From the NCBI GenBank assembly GCA_026389845.1, contig JAPLHB010000187.1, forward strand, positions 1-64,000: DNA of 64,000 bases. Direction: 5' to 3'. Numbering within the stretch: position 1 is the stretch's first letter; each line of letters begins with the position of its first letter. The notes under the pieces are model-generated. The model was not told the origin of the DNA. It made no database searches and saw nothing but the letters and a program-made list of their open reading frames with translations. The DNA comes from Chloroflexota bacterium (lineage in GTDB: Bacteria > Chloroflexota > Anaerolineae > CG2-30-64-16). Positions 1 through 33,254 of this stretch are shown piece after piece. The position numbers were made by a program, and so were the translations under genes.

Positions 1-884
1 CCCTCAAGCGACGCTGTTACGGCATCAGTCGCGTCGCCACGCTCTTCCAACGTTTGTATCTTGACCTGGAAGGTTATCGCCGGTTTGCGTAAGCGGAGCC
101 GTCCTATATGTGGCCCTTTCCCGCAAAATCCCAAAGAGCCGCAATAAAAGAAACCCTTCACCTGCAGTTGTATGCCTTCGCAGGTTTGCGCCGACACGTC
201 GAACTCGACTCGTTGTGGGTTCAACGGCACCACCTGTTTCACCCGTTCGAATCTCTCGGTCCACGTTATTCCTGGACCGAGAACCCGTCGAATATCCCCT
301 CCCCACTCTGTCACCACGGCGTTTGCAGGCTTGATGAGCAACAGACCCTTGCCGCCAAGTGCGGTCAGTACACCCGCGGGCTTTGTGGTGACGACCTTGC
401 CGTCTTCCACGATCTGGTATGCCTGACCGATTCCCAGGTACTGGTTGATCAGGAAACCACGAACTTCCGGTGTGTCCTTCTGGATGTACTCATCGAGTCC
501 ACACAGGAAGTCTATACTGAACGACGAGAGAAGGCGGAATGCATACCAGACGACGAAGTAGCCAATGCAGTAGCTAGATGCCAGTATCCCGATTACAACC
601 AGAACATGCCAGATTTGCCGTGGTTCTGCCAGGGCGTCTTGGCGTGCCGCGGCCAGCAGAATGGAGGAGATGGCGGTTCCAATTGCGGTGACTAGCAGGA
701 CAGCAGTGAAGAGCCGGCGCAGCCCCGGAGTTGCCGCATAGCGTCCAAGCAGGAGAAGAACAACGCATAGAGGTATTGCCAGCCATGGCATCTCTCGGGA
801 GAAGATGAGTATGGCTGCTGGTCCGCCGATCACGACGAGGAACATCAGGGTGAGTACTGGAAATGTGATCTTGGGCAATCCCAT
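1..884 (-). CDS. Membrane protein with SPFH/band-7-like domain (partial, runs off left edge)
   Basis: An open frame of about 294 codons runs from ATG at 884 off the window edge without a stop. A ribosome site AGGAG lies 10 bases upstream of the ATG. The first 125 residues hold about four hydrophobic segments, beginning with TFPVLTLMFLVVIGG, so the N-terminus is a membrane domain. The soluble part contains NAVVTEWGG, VLGPGITW and LNPQRVEFDV followed by EGIQLQVKG. This pattern resembles the start of an SPFH/prohibitin domain, which builds membrane-bound oligomeric scaffolds. It follows the HD-receiver gene on the same strand after 333 bases, so it may or may not belong to that operon. The membrane topology is clear; the SPFH assignment is by motif resemblance only and the C-terminus is missing. 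Confidence 0.65.
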   Translation of the reverse strand, partial: MGLPKITFPVLTLMFLVVIGGPAAILIFSREMPWLAIPLCVVLLLLGRYAATPGLRRLFTAVLLVTAIGTAISSILLAAARQDALAEPRQIWHVLVVIGILASSYCIGYFVVWYAFRLLSSFSIDFLCGLDEYIQKDTPEVRGFLINQYLGIGQAYQIVEDGKVVTTKPAGVLTALGGKGLLLIKPANAVVTEWGGDIRRVLGPGITWTERFERVKQVVPLNPQRVEFDVSAQTCEGIQLQVKGFFYCGSLGFCGKGPHIGRLRLRKPAITFQVKIQTLEERGDATDAVTASLE

Positions 885-1217: not shown

Positions 1218-3107
1218 TCAGGGTTTCAAGGAAGAGGCCGTCCCAGAAGATGAATCTGGAAAGAAGCCTAGGAGTGTCTCAAACAATCTCAGTCGTTGCT
1301 CTCGAGTGAGTCTTCTCTTGTGAGTGCGACTTTCGACTTCGGATACCTTGGAAGTCAACTCCCCTGGTGATAATGATGATTTATCAAAGAAGTATACGGC
1401 ATCGAAATCCCGGATGGCCTTATTGACTCCCTCCACTGAAGGATAACCTGTCACCACTATGATCGGAACGCCTTTGCCCACCGCGATTCGCGCTAAATCC
1501 CACCCCCTGAACTGGCCGTTCAGCTTGACATCAAGCAGGAGAACCAAGGGACTATATTCACCTAGCTTGTTCAATGCCTCATCGTAGGTCCCTGCTTGAT
1601 CACACCAGTATCCGGCCTCCGTCAGCGTGGTAACCAAGTACTGCCTATACCATACATGGTCTTCGACTATCAGCACGGGCTTCGATGATGATACGGGGAG
1701 AATATCTTCCCAGTTGATGTCTGGACGCAGTTGCTTACCAACTTCTATCAGTTCACGAATGCGGTCACGACGATCCAGATAGCTGATTAGTTCTCTCGCC
1801 TTGTTCGCTTTTCCACTATCGGGTAAGTCATCGTAGTCTACGTTCAAGCCAAAGCACAGGGTACGCAACTCTCCGTCATTGAAGCGAGTCACCAGTACTT
1901 GCAGTAGTGTCATCCGATGTGTCTGACTCGTGCTCCGTAGAGATGTTCCCGCTGCTGCGACACGCAGCACTGGAGCTTCCCGAACTTCGGATGCGGCTTT
2001 TCTCTCACCTGTCGTGTGATCTTGCTCGACTGTTGCAGTGAGTTGCTCCAAGAACTCCAGCACATCTCCACACGAGGTCTGCTCGATTTCCCTCGTGATT
2101 CTGTCAGGCAGATCCCGGGCACCAGCAAGCTCGCGCTCATCGAGAAGCATCTTGATGCCAGTGCAGCCCAAAGCGATAGCCAATTCTGGCGGGTACTGGT
2201 TGATATCGAAGTCCCATCTTTGAGCTTCTTCAATGTGCTCTTCGAACAGTGGCCTGAGGAAGTCGGTGTAGCGAACGGTGCCGATAGCTTTCGCCGGCAC
2301 TGCGACATACACTATGCACTCCAGGATGGGGTTTCCCCCCTTATTGACCTTGGCTATGAATGGCGCCTGCACGAAGTAGTGCTTAATCCAATGCCCTAGA
2401 GACACGGGATCCCTGAGAAGGGCCGCGGCGTTTTTCCTGAAGACCGTTGCCGGCGCCCGATTCTTGTAGAAATCCATTGCGTCAACCAGCCGAAGGAGCG
2501 CGGCCAATAGCCCCACGCGGATTTCCTCAGCGTTGTACTGCACGGTTTCATAACATCGGCACCGGCGTTCTTTCAGATTGGCCCTGCCATGTCCTCGACA
2601 GATCGCCATCAAGTAGGGCTTGTCGTCTTCTGTCACACCAGCAATCGGTGTCACATCCCGATACAACCAGTAGGCGCTGAGAAGGTTATGCGTCTCCCGA
2701 ATTTGTCCCCCAGTGTCTCGGCCAAAAAGCTGATAGTTCTCTATTGCGTCGCACCGTGCCTCCGGACAGAGCGGTAGAGACATCTTCGGATCAGGCAGGA
2801 TCGTCTCCTCGAAGGTCGCCCCATCAAAAAACATGCCGAGGTCATGCAGATAGGCCGCCGCAGCCAGGAGAAAAGCCTCATAGTGGCCCAGCTTGAGGCC
2901 AAACCCTGTTCGCAGGCGACCAAGGAGAAGGATGAGGTTATCAGAGTGCTGCTCATTATGCAACGTAAAGTCAGGCAGCAAGGGGGTACCCATACTAGCG
3001 ATCTCCGCAAGCGATGCCCTAACCCTCCGAATATCGTCAACCCTATCTACACCAAGTTGCCTCAGGCATTTTTCGATCTCGACGGGCACATTCTCTCGAT
3101 CTGGCAT
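1218..3107 (-). CDS. HD phosphohydrolase - effector-associated domain - receiver protein
   Basis: A 629-residue protein with three parts. Residues about 30-330 are an HD-type metal phosphohydrolase: H50 and H54 in FTLHNEQHSDN, the H88-D89 pair in AYLHDLGMF, H173 in CRGHGRA and D209 in LVDAMD are candidate metal ligands. Residues about 398-466 (LLQVLVTRFNDGELRTLC ... VDYDDLP ... ARELISYLDRR) match the short helical effector-associated domain type (EAD7-like) that recruits effectors in bacterial conflict systems. Residues 476-590 are a receiver with E481-D482, phospho-acceptor D526 and K576. The ATG at 3107 was chosen because GAGGAGG precedes it; an upstream TTG at 3143 has no such site. It is the last gene of the sensor-kinase operon and looks like its phosphorylation-controlled output. 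The substrate of the HD domain is unknown. Confidence 0.8.
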   Translation of the reverse strand: MPDRENVPVEIEKCLRQLGVDRVDDIRRVRASLAEIASMGTPLLPDFTLHNEQHSDNLILLLGRLRTGFGLKLGHYEAFLLAAAAYLHDLGMFFDGATFEETILPDPKMSLPLCPEARCDAIENYQLFGRDTGGQIRETHNLLSAYWLYRDVTPIAGVTEDDKPYLMAICRGHGRANLKERRCRCYETVQYNAEEIRVGLLAALLRLVDAMDFYKNRAPATVFRKNAAALLRDPVSLGHWIKHYFVQAPFIAKVNKGGNPILECIVYVAVPAKAIGTVRYTDFLRPLFEEHIEEAQRWDFDINQYPPELAIALGCTGIKMLLDERELAGARDLPDRITREIEQTSCGDVLEFLEQLTATVEQDHTTGERKAASEVREAPVLRVAAAGTSLRSTSQTHRMTLLQVLVTRFNDGELRTLCFGLNVDYDDLPDSGKANKARELISYLDRRDRIRELIEVGKQLRPDINWEDILPVSSSKPVLIVEDHVWYRQYLVTTLTEAGYWCDQAGTYDEALNKLGEYSPLVLLLDVKLNGQFRGWDLARIAVGKGVPIIVVTGYPSVEGVNKAIRDFDAVYFFDKSSLSPGELTSKVSEVESRTHKRRLTREQRLRLFETLLGFFPDSSSGTASSLKP

Positions 3108-3160
3108 CTGCCTCCTCGTGTTTGGAGCCTCGGGCCGGCGCAATTGCTCACCAATACATC

Positions 3161-3583
3161 TCAGCTCTCATAGTGCAATGGTGTCTGGATTACCTCAGCC
3201 ACCTCTCGCTTGAGTTCGGCAGGATCATACTTGTCCTTGGGAATAACATCCCACACGTCATAGTCGCGGAAAGCTCTTCGCGTGCGTTCTTCTTGATGAG
3301 TAAAACCGCTCAGAATGATGACTCGATTGCCTGGCAGGATTCCCGCTGCCTGCAATGCATCAATCAGTCGGAATCCTTGCTCGTCTTCACCTGTATCTTT
3401 GACTAGATCGAGGTCGGCGATTACCAGATCGAACTCCATCTCCTGAAACAACTTCACAGCTTGTTGCAGAGACGTAGCTGAATAGACTTGATGCTCATCA
3501 GAGAGGGCAAGTTGGACTTCCCTAAGCCACTCTGCCTTATTTTCCAAGTGGAGTATCTGAGCGCGTTTGACCGGCTTCATCAT
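3161..3583 (-). CDS. Stand-alone response-regulator receiver
   Basis: A 140-residue single receiver domain. D57 in FDLVIADLDL is the expected phospho-acceptor and K116/K118 in VIPKDKY the expected lysine. The acidic pair at the first strand is changed to E14-N15 (LHLENKAEW), so Mg2+ binding may be altered. There is no output domain. AAAGGAGG precedes the ATG. It lies 11 bases after the previous receiver gene and about 53 bases before the HD-receiver gene, so all three are probably cotranscribed. A likely role is phosphate shuttle or competitor between the GAF kinase and the receiver of the HD protein; this is inferred from position. Confidence 0.8.
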   Translation of the reverse strand: MMKPVKRAQILHLENKAEWLREVQLALSDEHQVYSATSLQQAVKLFQEMEFDLVIADLDLVKDTGEDEQGFRLIDALQAAGILPGNRVIILSGFTHQEERTRRAFRDYDVWDVIPKDKYDPAELKREVAEVIQTPLHYES

Positions 3584-3594
3584 CTGCCTCCTTT

Positions 3595-4080
3595 CTAGTT
3601 GTGGATTGCCTCGATGTCAAGAATCCTCTCGAGGTCGAGCAAACTCATTTGCGATGTTTTCCGTGAACGCATAAACTTCTTTGCCCCGCTTAGCCTCTTG
3701 GCGAGGAGAAGTTCATCGTGAACCAGTGTTAGCAATCCCTTACTCTCGTATGGCTTATCAGCACAATCAAGGACTCCTGCCTTGAAAAACATGCGCAGCG
3801 TCTCATCCTCCTGAAAAACCGGAAACATAACTACAAATCGCCATCCATCAAGAGGAATTCTGGTGAGTTGGGCGATGGCCGGTAGATTACTGGCAGCCAC
3901 GTCCAGCCCAATAAAGATGAGGTCAAATTCCTTGGATTGTCCTTCTCGCATACAACATTCGTTCGCTTCCTCGAAACTTCTCGCGGTGATCACCTCGTAC
4001 TGCTCCCTCAGTACCTCCGAAGCAAACCGAAGCCATTCAGGATGTCGGTCAACCAACAGAATCCGTCCTTCGGTGTCCAT
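3595..4080 (-). CDS. Receiver-like protein lacking the phospho-acceptor aspartate
   Basis: A 161-residue protein whose first 125 residues follow the receiver fold: ILLVDRHPEW, EFDLIFIGLD, and the conserved lysine K109 in CADKPYES. The position normally holding the phosphorylated Asp is G58, so this is probably a pseudo-receiver that works by protein contact. The C-terminal 45 residues are basic and helical (KRLSGAKKFMRSRK) and could bind a partner. The start at 4080 has a near-perfect AAGGAGGTGAT ribosome site. A longer frame reaching upstream to 4242 overlaps the kinase gene and is not needed. It sits 19 bases after the kinase stop. Confidence 0.75.
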   Translation of the reverse strand: MDTEGRILLVDRHPEWLRFASEVLREQYEVITARSFEEANECCMREGQSKEFDLIFIGLDVAASNLPAIAQLTRIPLDGWRFVVMFPVFQEDETLRMFFKAGVLDCADKPYESKGLLTLVHDELLLAKRLSGAKKFMRSRKTSQMSLLDLERILDIEAIHN

Positions 4081-4099
4081 ATCATCACCTCCTTTCCTG

Positions 4100-6286
4100 C
4101 TAAACTGGCAAACGCATGAGAAAGGTGGTTTGGTGGGCATTACTCTCAAGTACGTACACATCCCCACCGTGCAATCGCAGAGCGGTGCGCGCCCCCCACA
4201 ATCCCAGGCCGTAGCTTTGTGGCTCGCTCTGGCCCTGTGCATCAGCTGAGAAGAGCCTAAAAATCCCTTCCCACCGTTCTCGAGCGATCGCGGGCCCGTG
4301 ATTTGTGAACGCCAATTCGATCATGCTACCCTGTACGCAAGTACCACTGACCTCTACCTGTCCGCGTTCAAGCCCTTCTTTCTTCAGACGCCTACGTGTG
4401 AACTTGATAGCATTATCTAGTATTTCCACGATGTAGCTTTGGATCTTCTGGGCCTGAACCTGAACTCTTGGCAGGTCTGGTGCAAGGTTCACTTGAATGC
4501 CGATATCCGGTTGTGCACCTATGACGCTCAGCGCCTCTGCCAAGATAAGTGCTATGCTGACTTCAGCCTTGGGTTCGGGGTTGTAAGGTTTGAAAAGATC
4601 ATCGGCCGCTTCCATGATGCCTTGCGCATTCTGAAGAATGATGTTCAAATCCTCTACCTGTTGAGTTGTCAGACCAGATAATTGAGTGCTCAACCGCTTA
4701 TCACACGTCCGTATGATACCTGCCAGATTCTTCACGTGGTGTGCTACTTCTGCCGTAACCATTCCAACACCAGCGCTTACCTCCGCGGCCAACCTCCGTG
4801 CCTCAAGTTCTTCCGCCTCTATCTTCTGCTGGATGAGGACAGCGGCTTGATCGGCGATGCGTTCGAGAAGCCCTCTGCTGTACGGCTTGAAAGCATCGGC
4901 GACTGGGGACTCGACGTTTAGCACACCGATGAGCCTGCCATCACCGGGTTGATCTCTGCCTATTATCATTGGAACAGCAATCTCAGAGCGTGTGCCCTCG
5001 ATGTATACCAGGTAATCATCTGCCTGCTCTATGTTGGACGCATAGGCCGTTTGTTTGTCCCGAGCAGCTCTGCCGGTGATGCCCTTGGACAACGGAATAC
5101 GCTCATATTCGTGCGATTTTTGTGCGAGCTTTCCTGCCCTAGCCCGGATTATAAGCTCATTCGTCGCCTTGTCCAACAACTGGATGGTTCCATCCCGAGC
5201 GCCAACTTCCCCCAATGTCAAGTTGAGAATTGACTGCAAGTAGTCTGGCAGCTTAGCGTGTACTTCAACCGCTCTTACTACCTCTTGAACGGTCTCCAGT
5301 TGCCTCTTTGCGTCGTACAGCAAGCCAGCCATGTTGATAGCAGTAGCTGCTTGGTCGGCAAAGATACGGATGGCACGTTTATCGCTATCGGTAAAGCGGT
5401 GTGGCTCGCGAACGTAGTTGATGAACAGAATACCTACTGGCTCCTTGCCATACTTTAGGGGGATAGCAGCGGAAGACTTCACACCTCGATTGCGGATGAA
5501 CGAACTATCTTTTAGCAGCGGATGTACGAACGAGTCCTCGGCTATGACCAGTTCTCCTCCCTCAATGACTCTAGCCGCGATGCCATCCTTACTTGGCAAT
5601 GGCTGCGACTTCGCTCCCACCAGTATTGGCAAGTAGAACTCGTTTGTAGCTCGATCATATAGATAAACGGTTGCCAGATCTGCCTCAAGAACCTCTGCGG
5701 CTTTTTCGGTCACTCGAGACAGCAGTTGCTCCAGATCACTTTCAGATGTCAAGGCCATCCCAACTGCCTGCAGACCTTCAAGTTCCTCTATCCTTTCCTG
5801 CAAATCGTCGAAGAGCCTGGTGTTATCCAGGGCGATGGCCGCCTGGTTTGCCATAGCCTGCAGTATCTCCCGGTCATCGCGATTGTAGACGTAGTCTCGT
5901 GTCAGGTGATAGGTGGCTATTACACCTAGCACCTTGTCTCCTACCATCATCGGCACACCAAGCCATGAGGCAAATGGCCGCCCCACATATTCCTCATGCC
6001 CTGGCAAACCATACCAGGCCTCGGATTCCGCCTTTGTGGCACTGAAGAGCGGTTGTTTGCTACGAATGATCTCCTCCGTTCGTCCTTTGCCCGCCTTACG
6101 GGGCTGCCACCCTTCTGTCGTTGTTACGTCTATACGGTTGCCGTCCACAAAGGCCAATGGAAACCGAACCGTGTCTGTCGCTTCATCGTACAAAGCGATG
6201 TACATGTTATCGGTATCCATCAATTTGCTGGCTTGGCGGTGGATCAGCGCCAAAATTCCACCCTCATGCAGGCGAATGTTGGTCAT
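4100..6286 (-). CDS. GAF-GAF-GAF sensor histidine kinase
   Basis: A 728-residue soluble kinase. Three GAF domains occupy roughly residues 10-165, 180-335 and 345-505. They are followed by a phospho-acceptor helix with AEVAHHVKNLAGII near residue 525. The ATPase domain fills the last 130 residues: N-box EILDNAIKF, G1-like FTNHGPAI and G2 YGLGLWGA. There is no transmembrane segment, so it should sense a cytoplasmic signal. The ATG at 6286 has GGAGG seven bases upstream; the longer frame lacks one. The first GAF domain is closely similar to the last GAF of the upstream gene, suggesting a duplication and split. Its natural partners are the two receivers just downstream and the receiver in the HD protein. 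Confidence 0.85.
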   Translation of the reverse strand: MTNIRLHEGGILALIHRQASKLMDTDNMYIALYDEATDTVRFPLAFVDGNRIDVTTTEGWQPRKAGKGRTEEIIRSKQPLFSATKAESEAWYGLPGHEEYVGRPFASWLGVPMMVGDKVLGVIATYHLTRDYVYNRDDREILQAMANQAAIALDNTRLFDDLQERIEELEGLQAVGMALTSESDLEQLLSRVTEKAAEVLEADLATVYLYDRATNEFYLPILVGAKSQPLPSKDGIAARVIEGGELVIAEDSFVHPLLKDSSFIRNRGVKSSAAIPLKYGKEPVGILFINYVREPHRFTDSDKRAIRIFADQAATAINMAGLLYDAKRQLETVQEVVRAVEVHAKLPDYLQSILNLTLGEVGARDGTIQLLDKATNELIIRARAGKLAQKSHEYERIPLSKGITGRAARDKQTAYASNIEQADDYLVYIEGTRSEIAVPMIIGRDQPGDGRLIGVLNVESPVADAFKPYSRGLLERIADQAAVLIQQKIEAEELEARRLAAEVSAGVGMVTAEVAHHVKNLAGIIRTCDKRLSTQLSGLTTQQVEDLNIILQNAQGIMEAADDLFKPYNPEPKAEVSIALILAEALSVIGAQPDIGIQVNLAPDLPRVQVQAQKIQSYIVEILDNAIKFTRRRLKKEGLERGQVEVSGTCVQGSMIELAFTNHGPAIARERWEGIFRLFSADAQGQSEPQSYGLGLWGARTALRLHGGDVYVLESNAHQTTFLMRLPV

Positions 6287-6308
6287 AGGTTTTCCTCCAC
6301 ATGATTTG

Positions 6309-9300
6309 CTAGCCCACCCTGTCCTCGCGCAGGCGAATGCTGGAAGTGACCGCCTGTCCAAACTCAACAAGGGCCTCCAGCCTACGGTTAACATCGTAGA
6401 ACATATACGCGTTGTCTAGCGCAATTGCTGCCTGATTGGCCATCGCCTGCAAGATCGCCAGATCATCGCCACTGTATACGTAGTCCCGCGCTGGGTGATA
6501 CGTAGCAATTACCCCCAGCACCTTCTCGCCCACCATCATCGGGACACCGAGCCAGGAAGCCCAAATGGGGCCGCCAGTATACTCCTCATGCTCTGGCGAG
6601 GCATACCAGGTCTCTGATTCCGCTTTCGTGGCAGTGAAGATCGGTTGCTTGGTACGAATGATCTCCTCCGTCCGGCCCTTGCCCCCCGTGCGGGGCTGCC
6701 ACCCTTCTGTCGTTCTCACGTCTATGGGCTTGCCGTCCACAAAGGCCAGTCCGAAGCGGACGGTGTCTGTTGCTTCATCGTACAAAGCGATGTACATGTT
6801 GTTCGTGTCCATCAACTGGCTGGCTTGCTTATGAATCAGGTCCAGGACCTCGTCCTCATGCAGGCGGATACCAGACGTTAATGCACGCCCGAGTTCATCT
6901 ACGATATCCATTCGCTTCACCAAGCGAGCGTTTCGGATCGCAATCGCAGCCTGGCCAGCCATAGCTTCCAGCAATTGTTGGTGATCTGGCGAAAGCCCAT
7001 TGAGAACTGGACTCTCGACACTCAATGTGCCAATGGCTCTATCTTTGTAACGCAATGGCACTGTCAACTGCGATCGGGTATCTGCATACCACTCTTCGTA
7101 GTGTTCATCCTTTCCAACGTCACCACATAAGTAGGATTGCCCCGTAATGGCTACCCATCCATTGATGCTATGCTCGTCAAGAATAATAATAGGGAGATCA
7201 GAGGTAGGACGCACATCTCCTGCAAGCCCTCCAAATTCCAATCGGTTGCGGGCTCTATCTACCAGCCAGACTCCACCATATTTCGCTTCGGTCAACTCTA
7301 CGGCTTTCTCAGCGATGAGCCGCATTACGTCCTGCGGCTCATCATGCATTGCCGCGTAGATTTCTCGCAACGCGCCGATGTCATTCAGACGCTCGTCCAG
7401 CCTCCTTTGTATTCTGGCGAACAGGTCGGCGTTGTATAGCGCTATCGCTGCCTGGTCGGCAAGGACGACGGCGAGTTCCTCGCTGGCCCCATCGAATGCA
7501 TCAAGTCGCGTGCTCTCAGCATTCAACACCCCGACGAGTTCTTCACCAATCAGCATGGGCACATCGAGTTCGGATTGAGTTGCCGCCACGTGTTCGATAT
7601 AGCGGTTATCCTTCTTCACATCCCCCACGCGGACCGGTTCCCCTGTCTCTGCTGCTGTGCCAATCAAGCCCTTGCCAACAGGTACACTTAAATACCTCTC
7701 TTTCCCTATTGCATATTGGAACTCCAGTTGATTTGTGGCTTTGTTCAGCAGGCAAATGGATCCGATCTCACATCCCAGAAGCTCCAGGGAACGGGCCAGG
7801 ATTTTTTGCAACAGTTCGTCCTTGTCAAGAATGCGCGTGATGTCTCGCGCGATATCCTGAAGGGCTTTGCGTTGCTCAAGCAGCCGGGCGTTATGAATGG
7901 CAATCGCAGCCTGGCTGGCGAATAACTCAATCAACTCCTTGTGTGGTTGAGGGAAAGTCTGTGGAGTACGATAGTTCGCAAATAACACACCAACCACTTC
8001 GGTACCCACAATTAACGGCACAGCCGCCGTTGCTCTGATCTTCTCGCGAAGGACGAATCGCGCTGGAGGGGCATCCGGACGCACCACTGTAAACGGTTGG
8101 ATCAGGGTTGACTCTCGTTGGGATTCCGGAACATATTGAGGTTGCCTGCTTCTAACAATCGCGCACACAACGTCGTCCGGATAGATCTTGTCTTTGCGCA
8201 CCGACGTATCGTACCGCTCGCCTACCAGCACAGGGGGAAGAACGTACTTGTCTCGGCTCTGGATGTACTGATAGAGATCAACCAGGTCGGCGCCCAGAAC
8301 ACCCTGAGCGTTCTGGGCGATCCTCGTGAGGATGTCATCCAGGGTGCCAGGCGTACTGGGAAGCGAAACCAGAGTTGGTGCTATCTCATATAACTTTCTC
8401 AGCGCCTCTGCTCTTGCAGCAGCCTGTTGATATAACCTCGAATTGTCAATGGCGATCGCCGCCTGATGTGCAAACAGTCGAACGGTGTCCTTCTCTTCAT
8501 CGCTGAATTGATGCGGAGTCCGAAAGTCTACATAAAGGATCCCCAAAACCCTGTCAGCAATCTTGAGGGCAACGCCCATGAAGGACTTGATTCCCTCCCG
8601 TTCAATGAAGGGACTTGCCAGCATAGCGGGGTCTTCTTCCTCGATATTGGAAACGGCAACTTCTCCCTCCCGTCTTACATAAGCAGCCATTCCCTTCTCA
8701 GTCCGCGGCCTTTCCGAGAGTAGAAGGGGTTTACTCAGTCCATGTGCGGCCACGCTTTCTTTGTCGTAGAACTCCTCACGGTCAACATCATAGGGATAGA
8801 TGACCGCGCAATCGGCTCCTGTCACCTCACAGGCTCCTTTGGCGATCTCCCGCAACACAACCAATGGTTGTTCTGTGATCAAACGCGCGAAAGCATCGCC
8901 AATATCAAGCAGCCGGATGAGTGTATGCTGTCTCTTGTCTGCCTCAAGCGTCAACCCGATCTGTGCAGCATAGTCCGTCAATAGCTGTTTCTCCAGATCC
9001 GAAAAATCACGCACTACGAAAGTGTAGATGCTAAGGACGCCCGTGACGATATCGCGCGCCTTGATTGGTACACAGAGCGTGGATTTCCAGCCCATCTCAC
9101 GGCCCATATCCTTGTATTTCCAACGCGGCTCAGAAGGGATATCGCGCACGATCGTGACTTGCCCACTCCGAAATGCTTCCCCCGTGATGCTCTCTTCGCT
9201 TAAGAAGAGCGTCGCTTCACGAACGTAGCTAGAAGGCAATCCAACCGACGCCGCGATCCGCAGAGCCTGCTTTTCTTTGTCGAGGACCCACACGCTGGCC

Positions 9301-9392
9301 GGCAGGTTCATCGTCCGACTGACAGTTTCAACCAACGGTTGGAAAAAGCCACTCTGGTTTTTGTCGTCCAGTTGCTTCGGATGATCGTCCAT
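6309..9392 (-). CDS. Six-GAF-domain sensor protein without kinase domain
   Basis: A 1027-residue protein made of six consecutive GAF domains (about 15-150, 160-330, 345-515, 520-690, 695-860, 865-1020). Each ends with a variant of the helix DQAAIALDN, and a short linker helix precedes the next domain. No histidine-kinase, cyclase or DNA-binding domain is present. The frame ends at SSIRLREDRVG, which is where the equivalent repeat in the next gene continues with the same motif (NIRLHEGGILALIH). The two genes therefore look like one former long GAF-kinase divided by a stop. The start at 9392 has GAAGGTGA upstream. It probably acts as a ligand-sensing partner of the kinase encoded 22 bases downstream. 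No ligand is evident. Confidence 0.85.
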   Translation of the reverse strand: MDDHPKQLDDKNQSGFFQPLVETVSRTMNLPASVWVLDKEKQALRIAASVGLPSSYVREATLFLSEESITGEAFRSGQVTIVRDIPSEPRWKYKDMGREMGWKSTLCVPIKARDIVTGVLSIYTFVVRDFSDLEKQLLTDYAAQIGLTLEADKRQHTLIRLLDIGDAFARLITEQPLVVLREIAKGACEVTGADCAVIYPYDVDREEFYDKESVAAHGLSKPLLLSERPRTEKGMAAYVRREGEVAVSNIEEEDPAMLASPFIEREGIKSFMGVALKIADRVLGILYVDFRTPHQFSDEEKDTVRLFAHQAAIAIDNSRLYQQAAARAEALRKLYEIAPTLVSLPSTPGTLDDILTRIAQNAQGVLGADLVDLYQYIQSRDKYVLPPVLVGERYDTSVRKDKIYPDDVVCAIVRSRQPQYVPESQRESTLIQPFTVVRPDAPPARFVLREKIRATAAVPLIVGTEVVGVLFANYRTPQTFPQPHKELIELFASQAAIAIHNARLLEQRKALQDIARDITRILDKDELLQKILARSLELLGCEIGSICLLNKATNQLEFQYAIGKERYLSVPVGKGLIGTAAETGEPVRVGDVKKDNRYIEHVAATQSELDVPMLIGEELVGVLNAESTRLDAFDGASEELAVVLADQAAIALYNADLFARIQRRLDERLNDIGALREIYAAMHDEPQDVMRLIAEKAVELTEAKYGGVWLVDRARNRLEFGGLAGDVRPTSDLPIIILDEHSINGWVAITGQSYLCGDVGKDEHYEEWYADTRSQLTVPLRYKDRAIGTLSVESPVLNGLSPDHQQLLEAMAGQAAIAIRNARLVKRMDIVDELGRALTSGIRLHEDEVLDLIHKQASQLMDTNNMYIALYDEATDTVRFGLAFVDGKPIDVRTTEGWQPRTGGKGRTEEIIRTKQPIFTATKAESETWYASPEHEEYTGGPIWASWLGVPMMVGEKVLGVIATYHPARDYVYSGDDLAILQAMANQAAIALDNAYMFYDVNRRLEALVEFGQAVTSSIRLREDRVG

Positions 9393-9442
9393 ATCGTCAC
9401 CTTCTCCAGGCAAAGCTGTACTTGCCCAAGCGTCTATCCTTC

Positions 9443-10753
9443 TCAAGCCGACGCATACTGATAGGCTGGTTGCTCAAGCTCGATTCCTCTTTGCTGCAAT
9501 CTTGCTCGGGCGAGCGGCAACGGAACACCAAACCCCTTAACTAAGCTGATCAGTTGCTCCTCGCTTGGAGCCCATTCGCTGACCCAGGCAAGGCGATCCA
9601 GTTGCTGGTAACCTCTCTGCAGAGTCTTTGCGAAGCGCAACCGCTCATCGGCGAAGTAGTCGAGCAGAGTCTGCTTGCCACTGACCAGCCCAGGATGCTG
9701 TTCACCGTAGATGGCAATGATCGAATCAATCAATCCAGGCAGAAATGCGGGAGAGGCGATCTCCAGTATCTCCTGTTGTGTCAATACACCCCTAACGAGT
9801 AGCTTCACAATGCGTGACCGTCCACCTTTACCGGGAGGAGGCGCTCCATCAGCGACAAGGAAAAGCAAAGCTCTCACATAGTCACAGATGATTTCTTGAG
9901 ACCTCTCGGCCCAGCTATTAGAACCTACACCATTACAGAACTCTCTCACCTTGTCCAAGAGTGGCCTCATGCAATCAATCTCGAAAACCGAGGCCTTGCC
10001 TTGCGCGATCATAGCGACTCTTTCTGTACCAATCACAGTTTCATTAAAAGGTCTGTCCATCAATCGCAAAGTGCTGGTTTTCTCGTTCAGTTCAGCAAAG
10101 ATAAAAAGCGAGTTGGCAAATTCAACAAACCTGCCACAGCGACACCCTGGTCGGCAACTCGCACCACAACCAAAAGCTTCTCCACGGTCAAAAAACACTT
10201 CGGTATTAGGCCCGCACTTTCGAATGGATTCGCGACCGTCTATGCCACCACCTTGCAACCAGAAGTTGTCCTCCGGACCCAACGCCACAATTTGCTCTTC
10301 CGAAAGACCTATTTGCCTCCAGATTTGACAGGTCTCCATATCCGGTGGGAATTCATGATCTCCTTTGACGCCTCCATTAAAATACGTGATACTTAGACAG
10401 TTCGGTGCGATTTTTAGAACACCCGTGATCAAATGCCACATACGCTGTATAGTTTCTGCTTTGCTATTCCTTGCAAACGTAAAGGCGCCAGGCATTTCAA
10501 ACAGGCTTAAATGAACATTGCTACTGCCAATTCTGTCCAGATCGAAGTGTCTGAAGCACTTCTGTTGCAGTACATAAGAGCCATCCCCAACATCCCCCAA
10601 CTTGTCCAGAGCTGTCTCGACCTGGACGAGGCCAGCGCTCATAACAAAGGTCATCGGAATAGAAGGATCTAACAATGAAGCAGTCGGCAAAGGCCGATAC
10701 CCGATGCTCTGATAATAACTGGCGAATCTTGCACTGATGTCGAAGGAGTTCAT
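9443..10753 (-). CDS. Alanyl-tRNA-synthetase-like protein, catalytic core only
   Basis: A 436-residue homologue of the class II catalytic core of alanyl-tRNA synthetase. Visible are IGYRPLPTASLLDPSIP, the motif-2 region KCFRHFDLDRIG ... LFEMPGAFTF with R68, DNFW, the CRPGCRCGRFVEFANSLFIF block and motif 3 IGTERVAMIAQG. The editing domain and the C-terminal domain of the roughly 870-residue housekeeping enzyme are absent. A start at 10753 is preferred because GCGAGGG precedes it and the family N-terminus begins there; GTG 10786 and ATG 10777 are alternatives. It is the first gene of the GAF-kinase-HD operon, 50 bases before the six-GAF gene. It could aminoacylate something other than tRNA, or bind an amino acid or tRNA as a sensor. 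That it is not the housekeeping enzyme is inferred from length and context. Confidence 0.8.
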   Translation of the reverse strand: MNSFDISARFASYYQSIGYRPLPTASLLDPSIPMTFVMSAGLVQVETALDKLGDVGDGSYVLQQKCFRHFDLDRIGSSNVHLSLFEMPGAFTFARNSKAETIQRMWHLITGVLKIAPNCLSITYFNGGVKGDHEFPPDMETCQIWRQIGLSEEQIVALGPEDNFWLQGGGIDGRESIRKCGPNTEVFFDRGEAFGCGASCRPGCRCGRFVEFANSLFIFAELNEKTSTLRLMDRPFNETVIGTERVAMIAQGKASVFEIDCMRPLLDKVREFCNGVGSNSWAERSQEIICDYVRALLFLVADGAPPPGKGGRSRIVKLLVRGVLTQQEILEIASPAFLPGLIDSIIAIYGEQHPGLVSGKQTLLDYFADERLRFAKTLQRGYQQLDRLAWVSEWAPSEEQLISLVKGFGVPLPLARARLQQRGIELEQPAYQYASA

Positions 10754-11157
10754 CCAGTCCCTCGCTGCTATTTGCATGAAACTCACCGTGTTCCTGGAAA
10801 AACGACGCAGGCGTTCCGAAAGCCTTCATCGCTGGATCCGCAATGCAGATTTGCCAATTCGAGGCCGCGATTACCGGGTTGAGAAACCGTTGCACGTAGA
10901 TCAACCGAGAGAAAGGCACCACAGCAACACCAACACAAGGCCATAGCCATGGATTTCAAGAACTGGAGACATGGGAGAAGAAAGCCCACTACTCTGCTCG
11001 GCCAATCAAGCAGCAGATAGTGACGCCGAGGAAACAACAAGTACGGGAAGGCAGCAATCGTCATTGATACCTACTCCGATAGACCAAGAAGGCTCCGCTA
11101 CGATCGGCGTGCGAACAGATGTTCTATACCAAAATCTATTGCCATCTTGATTGCACA
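10754..11157 (-). other. Long untranslated leader of the sensor operon
   Basis: About 400 bases lie between the candidate promoter at 11158-11186 and the AlaRS-like start. Several frames of 90-130 codons cross it on the minus strand, but none has a ribosome site or recognisable protein. A frame through 10922-10760 reads somewhat protein-like and could be a remnant. No riboswitch or T-box could be identified by eye. Confidence 0.35.
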
Positions 11158-11186
11158 AGTATACTAAAGGAATAGCTGATTGGCAA
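11158..11186 (-). promoter_or_regulatory. Candidate sigma70 promoter of the sensor operon
   Basis: On the minus strand TTGCCA (11186-11181) and TATACT (11163-11158) are separated by exactly 17 bases. It points at the AlaRS-like gene and is the only good promoter pair seen in the gap before it. Confidence 0.5.
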
Positions 11187-11328
11187 ATTCCGAGATAGCG
11201 CGCATTTGCCTTTTGTCCAGCAACGAAACGCTGGAACACCGCAGTTCGTGTGCTTGTTTTCCCTTGTCTATTCTGCCCACGAGCTGTAGGGCGCAACTCT
11301 CAAGCGATTCGGATTTTGTCCTTGCTCC

Positions 11329-13710
11329 CTACCCCCTCTTCACCACCACCCCCGTCACGTCATCCCCCCACTCCCGCCCCCCGGCCCACCCCGTCACCGC
11401 CTCCACCACCGCGCGGAGCAGATCCTCCGCGCTCGCGCCGCCGTTCGCGGCGACCACGGCCCGCAGCCGCTCGTCGCCAAACGGCTCCCCCGCGGCGTTC
11501 TCCGCCTCCGTCACCCCGTCCGTGTAGGACACCAGCGCGTCGCCGTGCTCCAGGTTGAGGCGTTCTTCCTTCAACTGGATCTCTTCGAAAGCGCCCAGGA
11601 CGATGCCGCGGAGGGCCAGCTCGGTCACTGCGCCGGTCGCGGCGTGATACCAGAGCGGCCGGGTGTGCCCGGCGTTGGCGTAGATCAGGCGGCCGGTCTC
11701 CAGCTCCAACGCGGCATAGACCGCGCTGATGAAGGTGTCGGCGTGGCTGTCTTTCAGGATCAGCGTGTTGGAGCGCATCAGGGCCGACGCGGGGCCGCGG
11801 CCGGCCAACGCCACGGTGCGAATGATGGTGCGGCTGAGGGCCATGAACAGCGCCGCGCCCACGCCGTGATCGGCCACGTCCGCGATCACCAGACCCAGCC
11901 GCGCCGGCTTGCCCGGCAGGTCGTAGAAGTCGTAGAAGTCGCCGCCGACCGAGCGCGCGGGCTGGTAGTACGCGACGACCTGCCAGCCGGGCGCCTCGGG
12001 ACAGCATTTCGGCAACATGCTGAGCTGAATCTGCCGGCCGACCTCCAGCTCCTGCTCCAATCGCTGCCGGGCGACCTCCTCGCGGTGGAGCCGGGCGTTG
12101 TCAATCGCGACGGCTGCGTGCGCGGCAAACGCCTTGAGCAGCTCGGTCTCGGCAGGCCCGATGGGGTGCGTCGCCAAATCAGCAGCGCGGGCTGCCGCGT
12201 CCGCCACCGGCGGCGCGGGAGCCGCCTCGGCTGGCTTTCCGGATAGACCGTAGGTGTAGAGGTTGATCGTGCCGAACGCGCGGTCGCGGCTGATGAGCGG
12301 CACCGCGACCATGCTGTGCAGCCCCAGGCGGACGATGGGCGCGCCGGCCGCGCCGGGGAGGGCCGTCAGGTCAGGCTCAGTGCGCGGGACGCGGGTCATC
12401 ACCGCCTGACCCGTGATGCTGTCCATGCCCAGTCGTTGGCCGCGGTAGACGGGATCAGCCAGGCTGCTCTGGAGGACGGTCAGGCTGGCCTGGTCGGGAT
12501 GGTATTCCCAGATCGTCATCTCGGCGCCGGGGAAGAGAGCCTGCACGTCGGTCAGGATGCGCGCCAGCACCGCATCCAGGTCGAGGGTCGAGCTGACCGC
12601 CAGGCTGCTGGAGCGCAGCTTTTCCAGCTCGTCGACGCGGCGGGCCAGCGCCTCGTCGGTGCGCCGGAGCAACTGCATGTTGTACACGGCGATGGCGACC
12701 TGGTCGCTGAACGCCGCCAGACTGCGTTTGTGCTCCTCGGTCAGCTTGAGCCTGGAGGCTTCGGCATAGCCAAGCTCCAGGGTGCCCAGCCCGGCGCCGG
12801 CCGCCTGCAACGGCAGAAAGACGCGCGCATATTTGTGCAGCGCAAAGCGATCCACCAGGGCCTTGTCCTGCGGATCGTCAATGCCGCGGGCGGCCGTCAG
12901 GCGTCTTTCCCGCAGGGCGACGACTGCCGGATGCCGGCCTGCCAGCGCGAAGCGCGCCACCGGCCGCCACTCCTCGCTCCACGGCCGGCCCACGCCCGCG
13001 GCCATCTCGATCATCGTGTCGCCTGCCAGGTAGAGCGCCGCGTAGTCGCAGCCGAGCGCCTGGGCCACCGCCTCCAGGACGCGGCCGAGGGTGGGCTGCA
13101 TCGTGCTGGCGCTCAACACCGCCTGGCCGATCGTCCGGTAGGCCGCGCGTACCATCACGTTCTCCATCGCGTTTGCGGCGTGCTGCAGGAAGTGGAGCAG
13201 ATCGAGCAGCCCGGCGGGCGATTCGTGCGGATCACGGCCGCGTGCGTAGCGTTCCACGCAGGCAATGCCGATGGGCCTTGCCTGTGCGGTGAGCGCCACG
13301 ACCAGCCGCGCCTCGTCGGCCGTGCCGCGCAGCGCGTAATTGCCGTAGCGGAAGGTCTGCGCCTCGACGCATTCGGGGTCGTAGAGGTCAACCGATACCG
13401 AAGCATCCTGAGCGGAGTCCCGTGTAGTTTGCGAGACGGAGTCGAAGGATGCCGAAGCGCCCGATGGCTGCTCCACAGGCTTCTTCGACTCCGCTGCGGC
13501 TCCGCTTTGCGAAGCATCCCTTTGGGACAGAATGCCTGCTCCGCTCGTGGTATTCGGGTAGGTCAACTCCAACCGCCCCTGCGCCGGGTTCGCCAGATAG
13601 ATGCGCACGTCGGCGTGGCCGAAGCCGAGCCGCAGCCCGCTCGCCACGATTTCGCACGCCTTTTCGAGCGAATCGGTCGCGTAGATAGACTGGACGATGG
13701 CTTCGAGCAA
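11329..13710 (-). CDS. Multi-GAF SpoIIE-type protein phosphatase (probable 3' part of a broken gene)
   Basis: A 793-codon frame with GAF-like domains (about residues 1-175, 190-345 and 365-550), a coiled linker (EVARQRLEQELEVGRQIQLSML) and a PP2C/SpoIIE phosphatase domain over the last 230 residues. The metal-site motifs GGDFYDFYDL and DVADHGVGAALFM, plus GHTRPLWY and WGDDVTGVV, are intact. The only start in frame is a weak TTG at 13710, inside sequence that reads as the continuation of the ATPase gene upstream in another frame. I infer that both were one ATPase-GAF-SpoIIE protein, divided by the heptamer array at 13734-13898. A second repeat (13402-13536) is translated in frame near residue 80. 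Anti-anti-sigma control is the usual role of such phosphatases. Confidence 0.75.
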   Translation of the reverse strand: MLEAIVQSIYATDSLEKACEIVASGLRLGFGHADVRIYLANPAQGRLELTYPNTTSGAGILSQRDASQSGAAAESKKPVEQPSGASASFDSVSQTTRDSAQDASVSVDLYDPECVEAQTFRYGNYALRGTADEARLVVALTAQARPIGIACVERYARGRDPHESPAGLLDLLHFLQHAANAMENVMVRAAYRTIGQAVLSASTMQPTLGRVLEAVAQALGCDYAALYLAGDTMIEMAAGVGRPWSEEWRPVARFALAGRHPAVVALRERRLTAARGIDDPQDKALVDRFALHKYARVFLPLQAAGAGLGTLELGYAEASRLKLTEEHKRSLAAFSDQVAIAVYNMQLLRRTDEALARRVDELEKLRSSSLAVSSTLDLDAVLARILTDVQALFPGAEMTIWEYHPDQASLTVLQSSLADPVYRGQRLGMDSITGQAVMTRVPRTEPDLTALPGAAGAPIVRLGLHSMVAVPLISRDRAFGTINLYTYGLSGKPAEAAPAPPVADAAARAADLATHPIGPAETELLKAFAAHAAVAIDNARLHREEVARQRLEQELEVGRQIQLSMLPKCCPEAPGWQVVAYYQPARSVGGDFYDFYDLPGKPARLGLVIADVADHGVGAALFMALSRTIIRTVALAGRGPASALMRSNTLILKDSHADTFISAVYAALELETGRLIYANAGHTRPLWYHAATGAVTELALRGIVLGAFEEIQLKEERLNLEHGDALVSYTDGVTEAENAAGEPFGDERLRAVVAANGGASAEDLLRAVVEAVTGWAGGREWGDDVTGVVVKRG
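13402..13536. repeat. Dispersed palindrome (family 2) inserted in frame in a coding region
   Basis: A 135-base element beginning AGCATCCTGAGCGGA and containing GTCGAAGGATGC arms. The copy at 25226-25346 has the same ends. Its length is 45 codons, so the phosphatase frame is kept and it adds a Ser/Ala/Gln-rich stretch between two GAF segments. Confidence 0.7.
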
Positions 13711-26849: not shown

Positions 26850-26910
26850 TATTATCCGCGACCCTGTCACATGGGGTCGCGGCCTTGTATTCCAGCGGTT
26901 GACATCCAAG

Positions 26911-29496
26911 ATGCCTCATCCACAGTTCGCCATCGAACAACTCTGGGCGGAGGCGGGTTTCACGCCCAATCCGGCTCAGCGCGACGCCATCTTGCATGCG
27001 GCCGGCCCGCTCTATCTGCCCGCCGGCCCAGGGTCGGGCAAGACGCGCGTGCTGCTCTGGCGGACGCTGAACCTGATCGTCTTCCACGACGTGCCGCCGG
27101 ACGCGATCTATCTCTCGACCTTCACCGAGAAGGCGGCGCGACAGCTCAAGGAAGGGTTGCGGGGACTGCTCGGCCTGGCGAGCAACTTGACGGGGCGGCC
27201 CTACGACATCTCGCAGATGTACGTCGGCACGGTCCACTCGCTCTGCCAGCGGCTGATCATGGACCGGCGTTTCTACACGGAGCGACAGCGTGGCCGGCCG
27301 CCGGTCCTGGTGGATGACCTCGGCCAGTACTTCCACCTGTATCAGTTGCGCCGGTGGGAGGCGTTCGTCCAGGCCGCAGGGCTTGACGGCGATCCCGTGC
27401 GCGACATCAATGCCCTTTTCGAGGAACATCAGCACCCAGGCTCACGGCACTACGCGGTCACCCACACCCTGGCGCTCTTCAACCGCCTCTCCGAGGAGTG
27501 CCTGACACCCGACCAGATCGCCCCGTCGGCGGCCGATCCGACACTGGCTGGGCTGGCGCGCATGTACGCGGCCTACCTAGACTCCTTGCGGCCCGCCGAT
27601 CAGCCGGCCAGCACCGATTTCGCGCTGCTGCAACAGGAGGCGCTCCGCGTCCTGGATGGACAGGACGACGCCGCGCCGGTCTTCCAGCACGTCATCGTGG
27701 ACGAGTACCAGGATACCAACAGTATCCAGGAACGGCTCTTTTTCCGATTGGCCCAAGGCAGCCGCAACCTGTGCGTCGTGGGTGACGACGACCAGGCGCT
27801 CTACCGCTTCCGCGGCGCGACCGTGGAGAACTTCGTGCAGTTCCCCCAGCGGTGCATGGCGGCGTTCGGCATGACGCCGACCACGATCCCCCTGGATACG
27901 AACTACCGCTCCCGGCGCCGGATCGTGGACTTCTATACCGACTTCGTCGGCCAATGTGACTGGTGCAACCCCGCCGGTGGGCACTTCCGCGTGACCAGCA
28001 AACAGATCCGGGCCGCCAACCCCGATGCCGGCATCGCTGTGGTAGCCAGCACCTGGGCCGCGCCGGACGACGTGGCCGCCGAGATCGCGGACCTGGTGAA
28101 ACGCCTGCTGGACGCCGGCCGGGTGGAGAACCCCAACCAGATCGCGTTCCTGTTCCCGTCGCTCAAGTCGCCGATGGTGGGGCGCATGCAGCAGGCATTG
28201 GAGAGCCACGGACTGCGGGTGTACGCGCCGCGCGCCGGCTCCTTCCTGGAGGTAGACGAATCGGTCGCACTGTTCGGTCTGTTCCTGCGTGTCTTTGGCC
28301 GGCCGGCCCGCGGCGACTTCGGCGGTGAGGAATATGAGAACTACCACCGCTGGCTGGATCGTGCTGAGGTCGAAGGGGAGAGACTGTGCCAGGCCGATCG
28401 CCGGCTGGATGTCTACGTGCGCGACCGCCAGGCGGAGATCGCCCAGGCCGTGACCGACTACGAGGCGCTGGTGCAGGTCGCCGAGCGGCAGAATTGGCCG
28501 TTGGATCAGTCCTACGAGCCGCGGCGGATGAAGCGCGCGTTGTACGACGCGGCGCGGCTTTCCGAGACCGCCCGCCGCAAGCTCGGCAGCCCCTACTTCG
28601 AGAAGGTGATCGAGCGCCGCAGCGCCGACGGCCGGCCCTTCTCCCTGAGCTACATCCTGTCGAGCATGACGGCTCTCGACTGGGGCGTCCTCGACCTCTT
28701 CTACCGGCTGTGCGGGTTCGACCACTTCCGGGCGATGTTCGACCTGGCCGAATGCGGCGAGGACGAGGGGCCAGTCTGCAACCTGGGCCTGATCTCGCAA
28801 TACTTATCCCGCTTCATGGACGAGTACAAGACCATCATCACGGCGTCGCTGCTGCAAGACGACGGCATGCCGCGCATCCTGTTCAGCGCGTACCTGTTCG
28901 CCCTCTGCCGCCGCGGGGAGAGCGAGTACGAGGACGCCGAGGATCCGTTCCCGAAGGGGCGCATTCCCTTCCTGACCATCCACCAGGCCAAGGGGCTGGA
29001 GTTCCCGGTGGTGGTGCTGGGCAACGCGCGCAAGGACACGAACCGGGGGCCGCAGCCGGTGGAGTGCCTGGTGCAGCCGCTGCTCGATCGGGAAGGGGAG
29101 CCGTTGAACCGGATGGCGGAGTTCGACGCGATGCGGCTTTTCTACGTAGCGTTGTCACGGGCCAAGAACCTGCTGGTGATTGCCCACCCCAAAGGGGGTG
29201 GCCAGCGCATCAACAAGCCGTTCCAGGCGCTCCTGGACGACGCCTTCCCGCGCATTCCGCAGTTGGACGTCGCCAGCCTGCCCGTCGCGCGCCTGGAAGA
29301 GGATGAGACCCCGCGCTCCTACTCGTACACCGGCGACTATCTGTTCTACCGCCGCTGTCCCAGGCAGTACATGATCTTCCGCAAGTACGGCTTCGTGCCG
29401 TCGCGGTCGCAGACGATGATGTTCGGGTCGCTGGTGCACCGGACGCTGGATGACCTGCACCAACTGCTGATTGCGCGGCGTAGCGAAGTCAGCTAA
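26911..29496 (+). pseudogene. UvrD/Rep-like superfamily 1 helicase, cut off within its C-terminal nuclease domain
   Basis: An 861-codon frame with all helicase motifs: GPGSGKTRVLLWR (I), STFTEKAARQLKE (Ia), VIVDEYQDTNSIQE (II), VVGDDDQALYRFRGA (III), TNYRSRRRIVDF (IV), FLTIHQAKGLEFPVVV (V) and LFYVALSRAKNLL (VI). The end, YRRCPRQYMIFRKYGF ... FGSLVHRTLDDLH, is the beginning of a PD-(D/E)XK nuclease domain. It then stops after LLIARRSEVS, where the composite GIY-YIG element begins. The missing part resumes at 30205. The helicase part could still be made. The ATG at 26911 was chosen over TTG 26899. It neighbours a type III restriction-modification locus, so a defence or repair role is likely. 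Confidence 0.85.
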
Positions 29497-29510
29497 GGCG
29501 ACTCCCGATC

Positions 29511-29664
29511 GCTGTCATGCTGAGCGGGTCTACGACACAAGGCATGTAACGACGACTGACCACAGCGAAGCATCTCAGTGGCAAGGGTTTCCAGGCAACC
29601 GCTGTCATGCTGAGCGGGTCTGCGACACAAGGCATGTAACGACGACTGACCAGCGAAGCATCTC
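29511..29664. repeat. Tandem duplication of a family 1 half-palindrome
   Basis: Two near-identical units of about 65 bases (29511-29577 and 29601-29664), each starting GCTGTCATGCTGAGCGGGTC and ending CAGCGAAGCATCTC, separated by 23 bases. They form the left arm of the composite element. Confidence 0.85.
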
Positions 29665-29691
29665 TACCTGGCCAAATGTGGGGAGCGTACC

Positions 29692-29979: not shown

Positions 29980-30204
29980 GATGCTTCGCTGGTGGCTCGC
30001 CGCGGTGAAAGTTGACTCGTTAACCCGCTCAGCATGACAATGGCACTTTGTCACCCTGAACGGGTTAACGAGGTGAGTCACGTTGTCCCTGACCACCAGT
30101 GAAGGGTCTCCGGCCGCGCGGTGCGAGATGCTTCGCTGGTGTCACGGGACCGGCAAAGTTGACTCGTTAACCCGCTCAGCATGACAATAACCGGGACATC
30201 AAGT

Positions 30205-31014
<810 letters not shown>

Positions 31015-31052
31015 AGATTCGCCTATTGCCTGTTGCGCAACCATTTTCATCT

Positions 31053-31329: not shown

Positions 31330-31387
31330 CCGCATCAAGACCTACGAGGTCTTCGAAGACCTCATAGGTCTGAATCAGGAGCTCATT

Positions 31388-33253: not shown

Positions 33254-33254
33254 G

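What the first reader, a model, noticed from the sequence alone, without database searches (positions are those of the whole stretch)
1218..10753. Six-gene operon joining an AlaRS-like protein, GAF sensors, a kinase, receivers and an HD-EAD-receiver effector
Gene spacings of 11-53 bases, one strand and one good promoter indicate one unit. Seen: class II synthetase core, nine GAF domains over two proteins, histidine kinase, two receivers, and an HD protein with effector-associated-like and receiver domains. Known: EAD-type domains recruit effectors in bacterial conflict systems; HD domains hydrolyse nucleotides or other phosphoesters. Inference: ligand or amino-acid/tRNA sensing is relayed by phosphorylation to switch an HD effector. 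I know of no described system with this composition.
Basis: partly seen in the sequence, partly recalled or inferred. Interest (0 to 1): 0.87.

Follow-up and report, generated by a model that had tools for sequence, protein, structure and literature searches.

The report
Kinase-controlled HD effector operon, horizontally acquired
A foreign-looking six-gene bacterial operon links a sensor kinase and a remodelled alanyl-tRNA-synthetase-like protein to an HD hydrolase that carries an adaptor domain from bacterial conflict (immunity-like) systems; the combination was seen in no other genome searched, so its function is inferred and still has to be tested.

Summary
Six same-strand genes (10753-1218) have gaps of 11-53 nt, ribosome-binding sites and one promoter-like site. 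Domain scans confirm an AlaRS-like protein, six plus three GAF domains, a histidine kinase, two small receivers, and an HD-CE-EAD7-receiver protein. EAD7 is well above its Pfam cut-off (66 vs 32 bits). The genome holds 11 more EAD7 copies, several fused to TIR, SIR2, CHAT, NACHT or FGE domains: standard conflict-system partners.

New facts: the operon's GC3 is 0.51-0.59, against 0.72-0.87 for most sampled genes of the contig, so it was probably acquired. No orthologue of the HD, AlaRS-like, kinase or receiver genes was found in the samples (10-400 Chloroflexota genomes, depending on the gene). HD-CE elsewhere is fused to an HSP90-like ATPase; the EAD7-receiver fusion was seen only here. The AlaRS-like protein keeps the fold and three substrate-binding residues but changes the alanine-binding Asp and Gly (D->E, G->V) and the G3:U70 readers. 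The second receiver lacks its acceptor Asp.

Best reading: a two-component phosphorelay that switches an HD hydrolase and docks it by EAD7 onto conflict complexes encoded elsewhere. Both steps are inferred, and the composition is known from one genome. New variant of a known kind.

The parts
9443..10753 (-). AlaRS-like protein (436 aa from ATG; 447 aa from GTG 10786): catalytic + tRNA-recognition part only, no editing or C-Ala domain
   Evidence: tRNA-synt_2c E 3.5e-57, alaS TIGR00344 194 bits vs cut-off 457; AF2 model pLDDT 80, best PDB hits AlaRS catalytic fragments; 30 of 81 columns invariant in 19 Chloroflexota AlaRS are changed, incl. D->E249, G->V251, D->K417; tree end branch 5.84
6309..9392 (-). 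Six-GAF protein, no output domain (1027 aa from ATG)
   Evidence: Pfam GAF_2/GAF, 6 stretches; ribosome-binding site
4100..6286 (-). GAF3-histidine kinase (728 aa); H-box AEVAHHVKN, N-box EILDNAIKF, G2 box GLGLWGA
   Evidence: 3 GAF + HATPase_c; motifs; SD GGAGG; first GAF is a duplicate (74% aa) of the last GAF of the upstream gene
3595..4080 (-). REC2, degenerate receiver: Gly at the acceptor position (DLIFIGLDV), no Thr/Ser at the switch
   Evidence: Response_reg 22.2 bits, below the 30.2 cut-off; sequence
3161..3583 (-). REC1, single-domain receiver with acceptor Asp (DLVIADLDL), Ser switch and Lys
   Evidence: Response_reg E 6e-9; sequence
1218..3107 (-). HD-CE - EAD7 - receiver protein (629 aa from ATG 3107); HD ligands H62/H66, H100-D101, H152, H185, D221 (numbered from TTG 3143)
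   Evidence: PF24391, PF19960, PF00072; motif alignment with other HD-CE proteins; EAD7 modelled as a four-helix bundle with pLDDT >90
1..875 (-). Downstream gene cut by the contig end: membrane helices + weak Band_7/SPFH match; membership of the operon uncertain
   Evidence: Band_7 E 9e-4, 19.8 bits vs cut-off 23.6
11158..11186 (-). Promoter-like site TTGCCA-17-TATACT, about 405 nt upstream of the AlaRS-like ATG
   Evidence: consensus match only

Best explanation
The operon is a horizontally acquired two-component system whose output is a conflict-type effector. The six-GAF protein and the GAF3 kinase sense one or more small ligands. The kinase autophosphorylates and passes phosphate to REC1 (relay or sink) and to the receiver of the HD protein, while REC2 acts as a non-phosphorylated partner. 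Phosphorylation changes the activity of the HD phosphohydrolase and/or exposes its EAD7 domain, which docks by homotypic contact onto EAD7-bearing complexes encoded elsewhere in the genome (TIR, SIR2, CHAT, NACHT and FGE proteins). The AlaRS-like protein is a re-purposed class II synthetase core that binds or activates an acyl substrate other than alanine, as a ligand sensor or ligand maker. Shown: gene order, domains, intact HD and receiver residues, EAD7 partners in the genome, foreign composition, selection on the GAF pair. Inferred: phosphotransfer, EAD7 docking, hydrolase substrate, role of the AlaRS-like protein, and any role in immunity.
For: EAD7 at E 2e-18 and 12 EAD7 copies in the genome, several fused to SIR2, TIR-FGE, FGE, NACHT-TPR, CHAT and TPR or beside STAND/WD40 genes, as described for EAD coupling in PMC7159879. 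HD metal ligands kept. Acceptor Asp, Thr and Lys kept in the HD protein's receiver. Kinase H-box aligned with that of ZraS. GC3 0.51-0.59 vs 0.72-0.87 for 7 of 8 other window genes tested, with a sharp GC step at about 11.3 kb. Type III restriction-modification genes lie on the same contig.
Against: No second genome shows the operon, so co-occurrence cannot be tested. The operon has no second EAD7 and no vWA/MoxR/VMAP/STAND core gene. PADLOC gives no defence call for any of the six (only weak partial hits). In published conflict systems, receivers were noted as occurring without histidine kinases (PMC8195603). REC2 is degenerate. The contig starts within the low-GC region and the genome has 8% contamination, so an assembly join is not excluded.
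Confidence: 0.42

Rival explanations
1. Ordinary two-component signalling: the HD protein is a response regulator with a phosphohydrolase output acting on a nucleotide or second messenger (analogous to REC-HD-GYP regulators). EAD7 only oligomerises it, and nothing concerns immunity.
For: Kinase, phosphorylatable receivers and a receiver on the HD protein; REC-HD fusions are a known regulator type (a receiver of an HD-domain protein, 3hv2, is among the structural hits); no PADLOC defence call.
Against: The HD is not HD-GYP but HD-CE; its two best other matches here are fused to HSP90-like ATPases. EAD7 elsewhere in this genome and family sits on conflict-type proteins.
Confidence: 0.33
2. The AlaRS-like gene is independent of the rest: a small, fast-evolving but working alanyl-tRNA synthetase (e.g. 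a resistance or stress paralogue) that happens to be first in the transcript.
For: Fold and motif-2/motif-3 arginines kept. A mini-AlaRS without editing and C-Ala domains and without the N303/D400 readers still charges tRNA-Ala (Tupanvirus, PMC10036535). Short AlaRS paralogues occur in other Chloroflexota.
Against: The Asp and Gly that hold alanine (E. coli D235, G237; listed as substrate-binding residues in PMC12467997) are Glu and Val here, while all 19 canonical Chloroflexota AlaRS compared and the short paralogues keep the Asp. It does not group with the short paralogues. The genome has a full-length AlaRS.
Confidence: 0.15
3. The six genes are a chance or decaying juxtaposition on a recently acquired segment, possibly an assembly join, with no joint function.
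For: Found once; low-GC segment at a contig end in a draft genome with 8% contamination.
Against: All frames open, each start with a ribosome-binding site, tight spacing, dN/dS about 0.13 in the duplicated GAF pair; uniform GC across all six genes.
Confidence: 0.1

Closest known systems
EAD-coupled NTP-dependent conflict systems (Kaur et al. 2020, PMC7159879; Kaur et al. 2021, PMC8195603)
   Same: EAD7 fused to an enzymatic domain; further EAD7 copies fused to TIR, SIR2, CHAT, STAND and FGE in the same genome.
   Different: No core vWA-MoxR/VMAP/STAND gene and no second EAD7 in the operon; the effector is tied to a receiver with its own histidine kinase, whereas receivers in those systems were noted as occurring without kinases.
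HD-CE proteins (Pfam PF24391)
   Same: HD-CE domain with all metal ligands.
   Different: The two best other HD-CE proteins found here (L095, L096) carry a C-terminal HSP90-like ATPase; this one carries EAD7 + receiver instead.
Two-component response regulators with HD output (HD-GYP type)
   Same: HD hydrolase and receiver in one protein, kinase in the same operon.
   Different: HD-CE, not HD-GYP; HD at the N-terminus, EAD7 inserted, receiver at the C-terminus; a degenerate extra receiver.
Mini-AlaRS of Tupanvirus (PMC10036535) and short AlaRS paralogues of Chloroflexota (L046, L048-L054, L056)
   Same: AlaRS core without editing and C-Ala domains; G3:U70 readers N and D absent.
   Different: The Chloroflexota paralogues keep the alanine-binding Asp; this one has Glu/Val at Asp/Gly, is on a very long branch and sits in a signalling operon, not a housekeeping neighbourhood. 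The Tupanvirus protein was not aligned here.
Eukaryotic GCN2 (kinase with a HisRS-like sensor; own knowledge)
   Same: Pairing of a synthetase-like protein with a kinase.
   Different: Separate protein, AlaRS not HisRS, histidine kinase not eIF2 kinase; analogy only, no test done.

Membership tests
EAD7 (effector-associated domain 7) | Profile match above the curated cut-off | tested here: met
   66.2 bits vs 32; modelled as a compact helical bundle with pLDDT >90
EAD-coupled conflict system | Cognate EAD on a core component or adjacent effector | tested here: inconclusive
   None in the operon; 11 further EAD7 copies elsewhere in the genome, several on TIR/SIR2/CHAT/NACHT/FGE proteins
EAD-coupled conflict system | Core vWA-MoxR-VMAP, GAP1 or STAND gene in the neighbourhood | tested here: not met
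   None among the six genes; STAND-like ATPase genes at 13.5-16.8 kb lie beyond the GC step and a 0.5-kb gap
HD-CE (PF24391) | Profile match above the cut-off and HD metal ligands | tested here: met
   108 bits vs 27; H62/H66, H100-D101, H152, H185, D221
HD-CE - HSP90-like fusions | C-terminal HSP90-like ATPase in the same protein | tested here: not met
   Present in L095 and L096, absent here
Two-component system | Kinase with phospho-accepting His and ATP-binding domain | tested here: met
   H-box AHHVKN, HATPase_c 46 bits; the G1-box Asp is Asn, as in VanS
Two-component system | Receivers with acceptor Asp, Thr/Ser and Lys | tested here: inconclusive
   Kept in REC1 and the HD protein's receiver, lost in REC2
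Alanyl-tRNA synthetase | NCBIfam alaS equivalog cut-off | tested here: not met
   194 vs 457 bits
Alanyl-tRNA synthetase | Alanine-pocket Asp235 and Gly237 (E. coli numbering) | tested here: not met
   E249 and V251; R69, W170 and N212 equivalents kept, M43 -> Leu
Alanyl-tRNA synthetase | Editing and C-Ala domains, N303/D400 readers of G3:U70 | tested here: not met
   Protein ends after the tRNA-recognition part; Asn -> Gly, Asp -> Lys
HD-GYP response regulator | HD-GYP signature | tested here: not met
   No HD-GYP profile hit; HD-CE is the hit
Known anti-phage defence system (PADLOC) | Convincing PADLOC match | tested here: not met
   Only weak partial hits: RT_UG24 30 bits, SduA 19-22 bits
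Anti-phage function | Protection or abortive infection on challenge | not testable with these tools
   Needs an experiment

The most novel reading that the evidence does not exclude
A conflict system gated by a phosphorelay and informed by a synthetase-derived sensor: an AlaRS core that no longer recognises alanine reports a metabolic or translation-stress ligand to a GAF-kinase cascade, which phosphorylates an HD-CE effector and plugs it through EAD7 into the cell's TIR/SIR2/CHAT immune network. It would be a bacterial analogue of GCN2-type stress sensing feeding immunity.
Probability: 0.13. Interest if true: 0.86.

Novelty: new variant of a known kind. Interest (0 to 1): 0.58.

Why it matters
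EAD-based conflict systems are thought to be switched by NTPase cores; no case I could find in the held literature has the effector under a dedicated histidine kinase in its own operon. If the relay is real, classical two-component signalling can control immunity-like effectors, and the EAD7 network of one genome (12 copies) could receive input from a phosphorelay. The altered AlaRS core gives a testable case of a synthetase turned into a signalling part.

Tried and rejected
Seed scans of 84,980 species genomes and IMG/VR with the AlaRS-like and HD-EAD proteins found no relative; seeds from a single sequence are insensitive, so this is weak evidence of absence. Plasmids and phages: no HD match; AlaRS matches there are at most about 30% identical, no closer than ordinary alaS. 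Grouping the AlaRS-like protein with the short AlaRS paralogues of Chloroflexota was rejected: those have housekeeping neighbours and a separate clade, though the very long branch makes placement unsure. A leader RNA such as a T-box in front of the AlaRS-like gene: no Rfam hit even at E 1. A single split GAF-kinase gene was considered, because the two proteins meet within a repeated GAF; rejected because the kinase has its own ribosome-binding site and the two copies are an old tandem duplication. A cyclic-nucleotide NKFDE motif in the GAFs: none. AF2 of the HD region failed (pLDDT mostly <50), so no fold claim is made for it. HD-CE could not be traced to a paper in the held library.
Full report
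Observation. The six genes are real and placed as described. Each start has a ribosome-binding site when the internal ATG starts are used (HD 3107, REC1 3583, REC2 4080, kinase 6286, GAF 9392, AlaRS-like 10753), which gives gaps of 11-53 nt. A promoter-like site lies at 11186-11158, and no terminator-like site was found upstream (10700-11400); the six terminator-like matches inside the operon region are no more than shuffles give. Pfam confirms the domain list: HD-CE + EAD7 + receiver; receiver; weak receiver; 3 GAF + HATPase_c; 6 GAF; tRNA-synt_2c.

The segment is foreign-looking. GC is 0.47-0.58 over the first 11 kb and then steps to about 0.70. GC3 of the six genes is 0.51-0.59, against 0.72-0.87 for seven of eight other window genes tested; the eighth, a PMT_2 gene at 37.5 kb, is also low. 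The contig starts at window base 1, within this segment, in a draft genome with 8% contamination, so the downstream border is unknown. A further gene (membrane helices + weak Band_7) is cut by the contig end.

The genes are under selection. The last GAF of the GAF protein and the first GAF of the kinase are a tandem duplication (about 77-80% identical) with dN 0.14 and dS 1.08.

Distribution. No orthologue was found of the AlaRS-like protein (150 relatives; in 400 genomes of the phylum only AlaRS-type hits up to about 35% identity), the HD-EAD part (400 genomes; 10 of the family), REC1 (301), REC2 (120) or the kinase (120). HD-CE itself is rare in the phylum: 8 of 400. The two best other HD-CE proteins carry an HSP90-like ATPase at the C-terminus. 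In contrast, EAD7 is common in this lineage. The window genome has 12 copies, several fused to SIR2, TIR-FGE, FGE, NACHT-TPR, CHAT and TPR or next to STAND/WD40 genes; family members add CHAT-STAND and ClpB-like fusions. This is the EAD pattern described in PMC7159879. No other EAD7 protein read here has a receiver, and no kinase was seen beside one.

HD protein. The HD ligands H62/H66, H100-D101, H152, H185 and D221 are kept relative to other HD-CE proteins. The receiver keeps the acceptor Asp, Thr and Lys. EAD7 is modelled with pLDDT above 90 and the receiver matches CheY-like structures; the HD part is not modelled well.

Kinase and receivers. H-box, N-box and G2 box are present. REC1 has acceptor, Ser and Lys. 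REC2 has Gly at the acceptor position and no Thr/Ser, so it is probably a docking or decoy receiver (inference).

AlaRS-like protein. The model has the AlaRS catalytic fold (pLDDT 80; best PDB matches are AlaRS catalytic fragments). Of 81 columns invariant in 19 canonical Chloroflexota AlaRS, 51 are kept and 30 changed. The ATP-side arginine (R69 equivalent), W170 and N212 equivalents are kept. D235, G237 and M43, listed with them as substrate-binding in PMC12467997, are Glu, Val and Leu. The G3:U70 readers N303 and D400 (PMC10036535) are Gly and Lys. Loss of the readers alone does not exclude charging, because Tupanvirus mini-AlaRS lacks them and is active; loss of the alanine pocket is the stronger argument. 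The protein has a very long branch (5.84) and does not group with the short AlaRS paralogues of other Chloroflexota, which keep the Asp. The genome has a full-length AlaRS.

Mechanism. Most likely (0.42): ligand -> GAF kinase -> phosphorylated receiver of the HD protein -> altered hydrolase and/or EAD7 docking onto the genome's EAD7 effectors. Every arrow is inferred from domain knowledge. The main rival (0.33) is ordinary signalling with an HD output, where EAD7 only oligomerises the protein. That the AlaRS-like gene is an independent, working mini-AlaRS has 0.15; that the set is a chance or decaying collection has 0.10.

Verdict. A true and unusual combination. Its parts belong to known families; the wiring of an EAD7-HD-CE effector to a histidine-kinase operon with a re-purposed AlaRS core was not found elsewhere. 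Because it is known from one draft genome only, interest is moderate to high rather than very high.

Noticed in passing
window 1-875 (-): Gene truncated by the contig end: several membrane helices followed by a weak Band_7/SPFH match, in the same low-GC segment.
   Followed up: partly
window 26899-36242 (+): UvrD-like helicase, then type III restriction-modification mod (30926-33253) and res (33255-36242) genes on the same contig.
   Followed up: partly
G000 contigs C148, C41, C8, C1, C20, C211 (L063, L068, L067, L066, L072, L069): EAD7 fused to SIR2; TIR + FGE-sulfatase; FGE-sulfatase; NACHT/STAND + TPR; CHAT + Big_5; TPR: a large EAD7 network in one genome.
   Followed up: partly
L046, L048-L054, L056: A clade of short AlaRS paralogues (about 445-555 aa) in two Chloroflexota families, with the alanine-pocket Asp kept but the G3:U70 readers lost, in housekeeping neighbourhoods; function unknown.
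   Followed up: partly
L057-L059: A second AlaRS paralogue clade of 609-636 aa in Chloroflexota, with DVGLGLER in place of DTGMGLER.
   Followed up: no
window 11329-13710 (-): GAF-GAF-SpoIIE phosphatase gene next to the operon but across the GC step (GC 0.69), followed by AAA/STAND-like ATPase genes.
   Followed up: no
window 10783-11064 (-): 93-aa hydrophobic ORF ending at the AlaRS-like GTG start; could be a small membrane protein heading the operon.
   Followed up: no
L128:1135-5229: ClpB-like AAA+ protein with an N-terminal EAD7, next to a gene that looks like a protein kinase, in a family member (G004).
   Followed up: no
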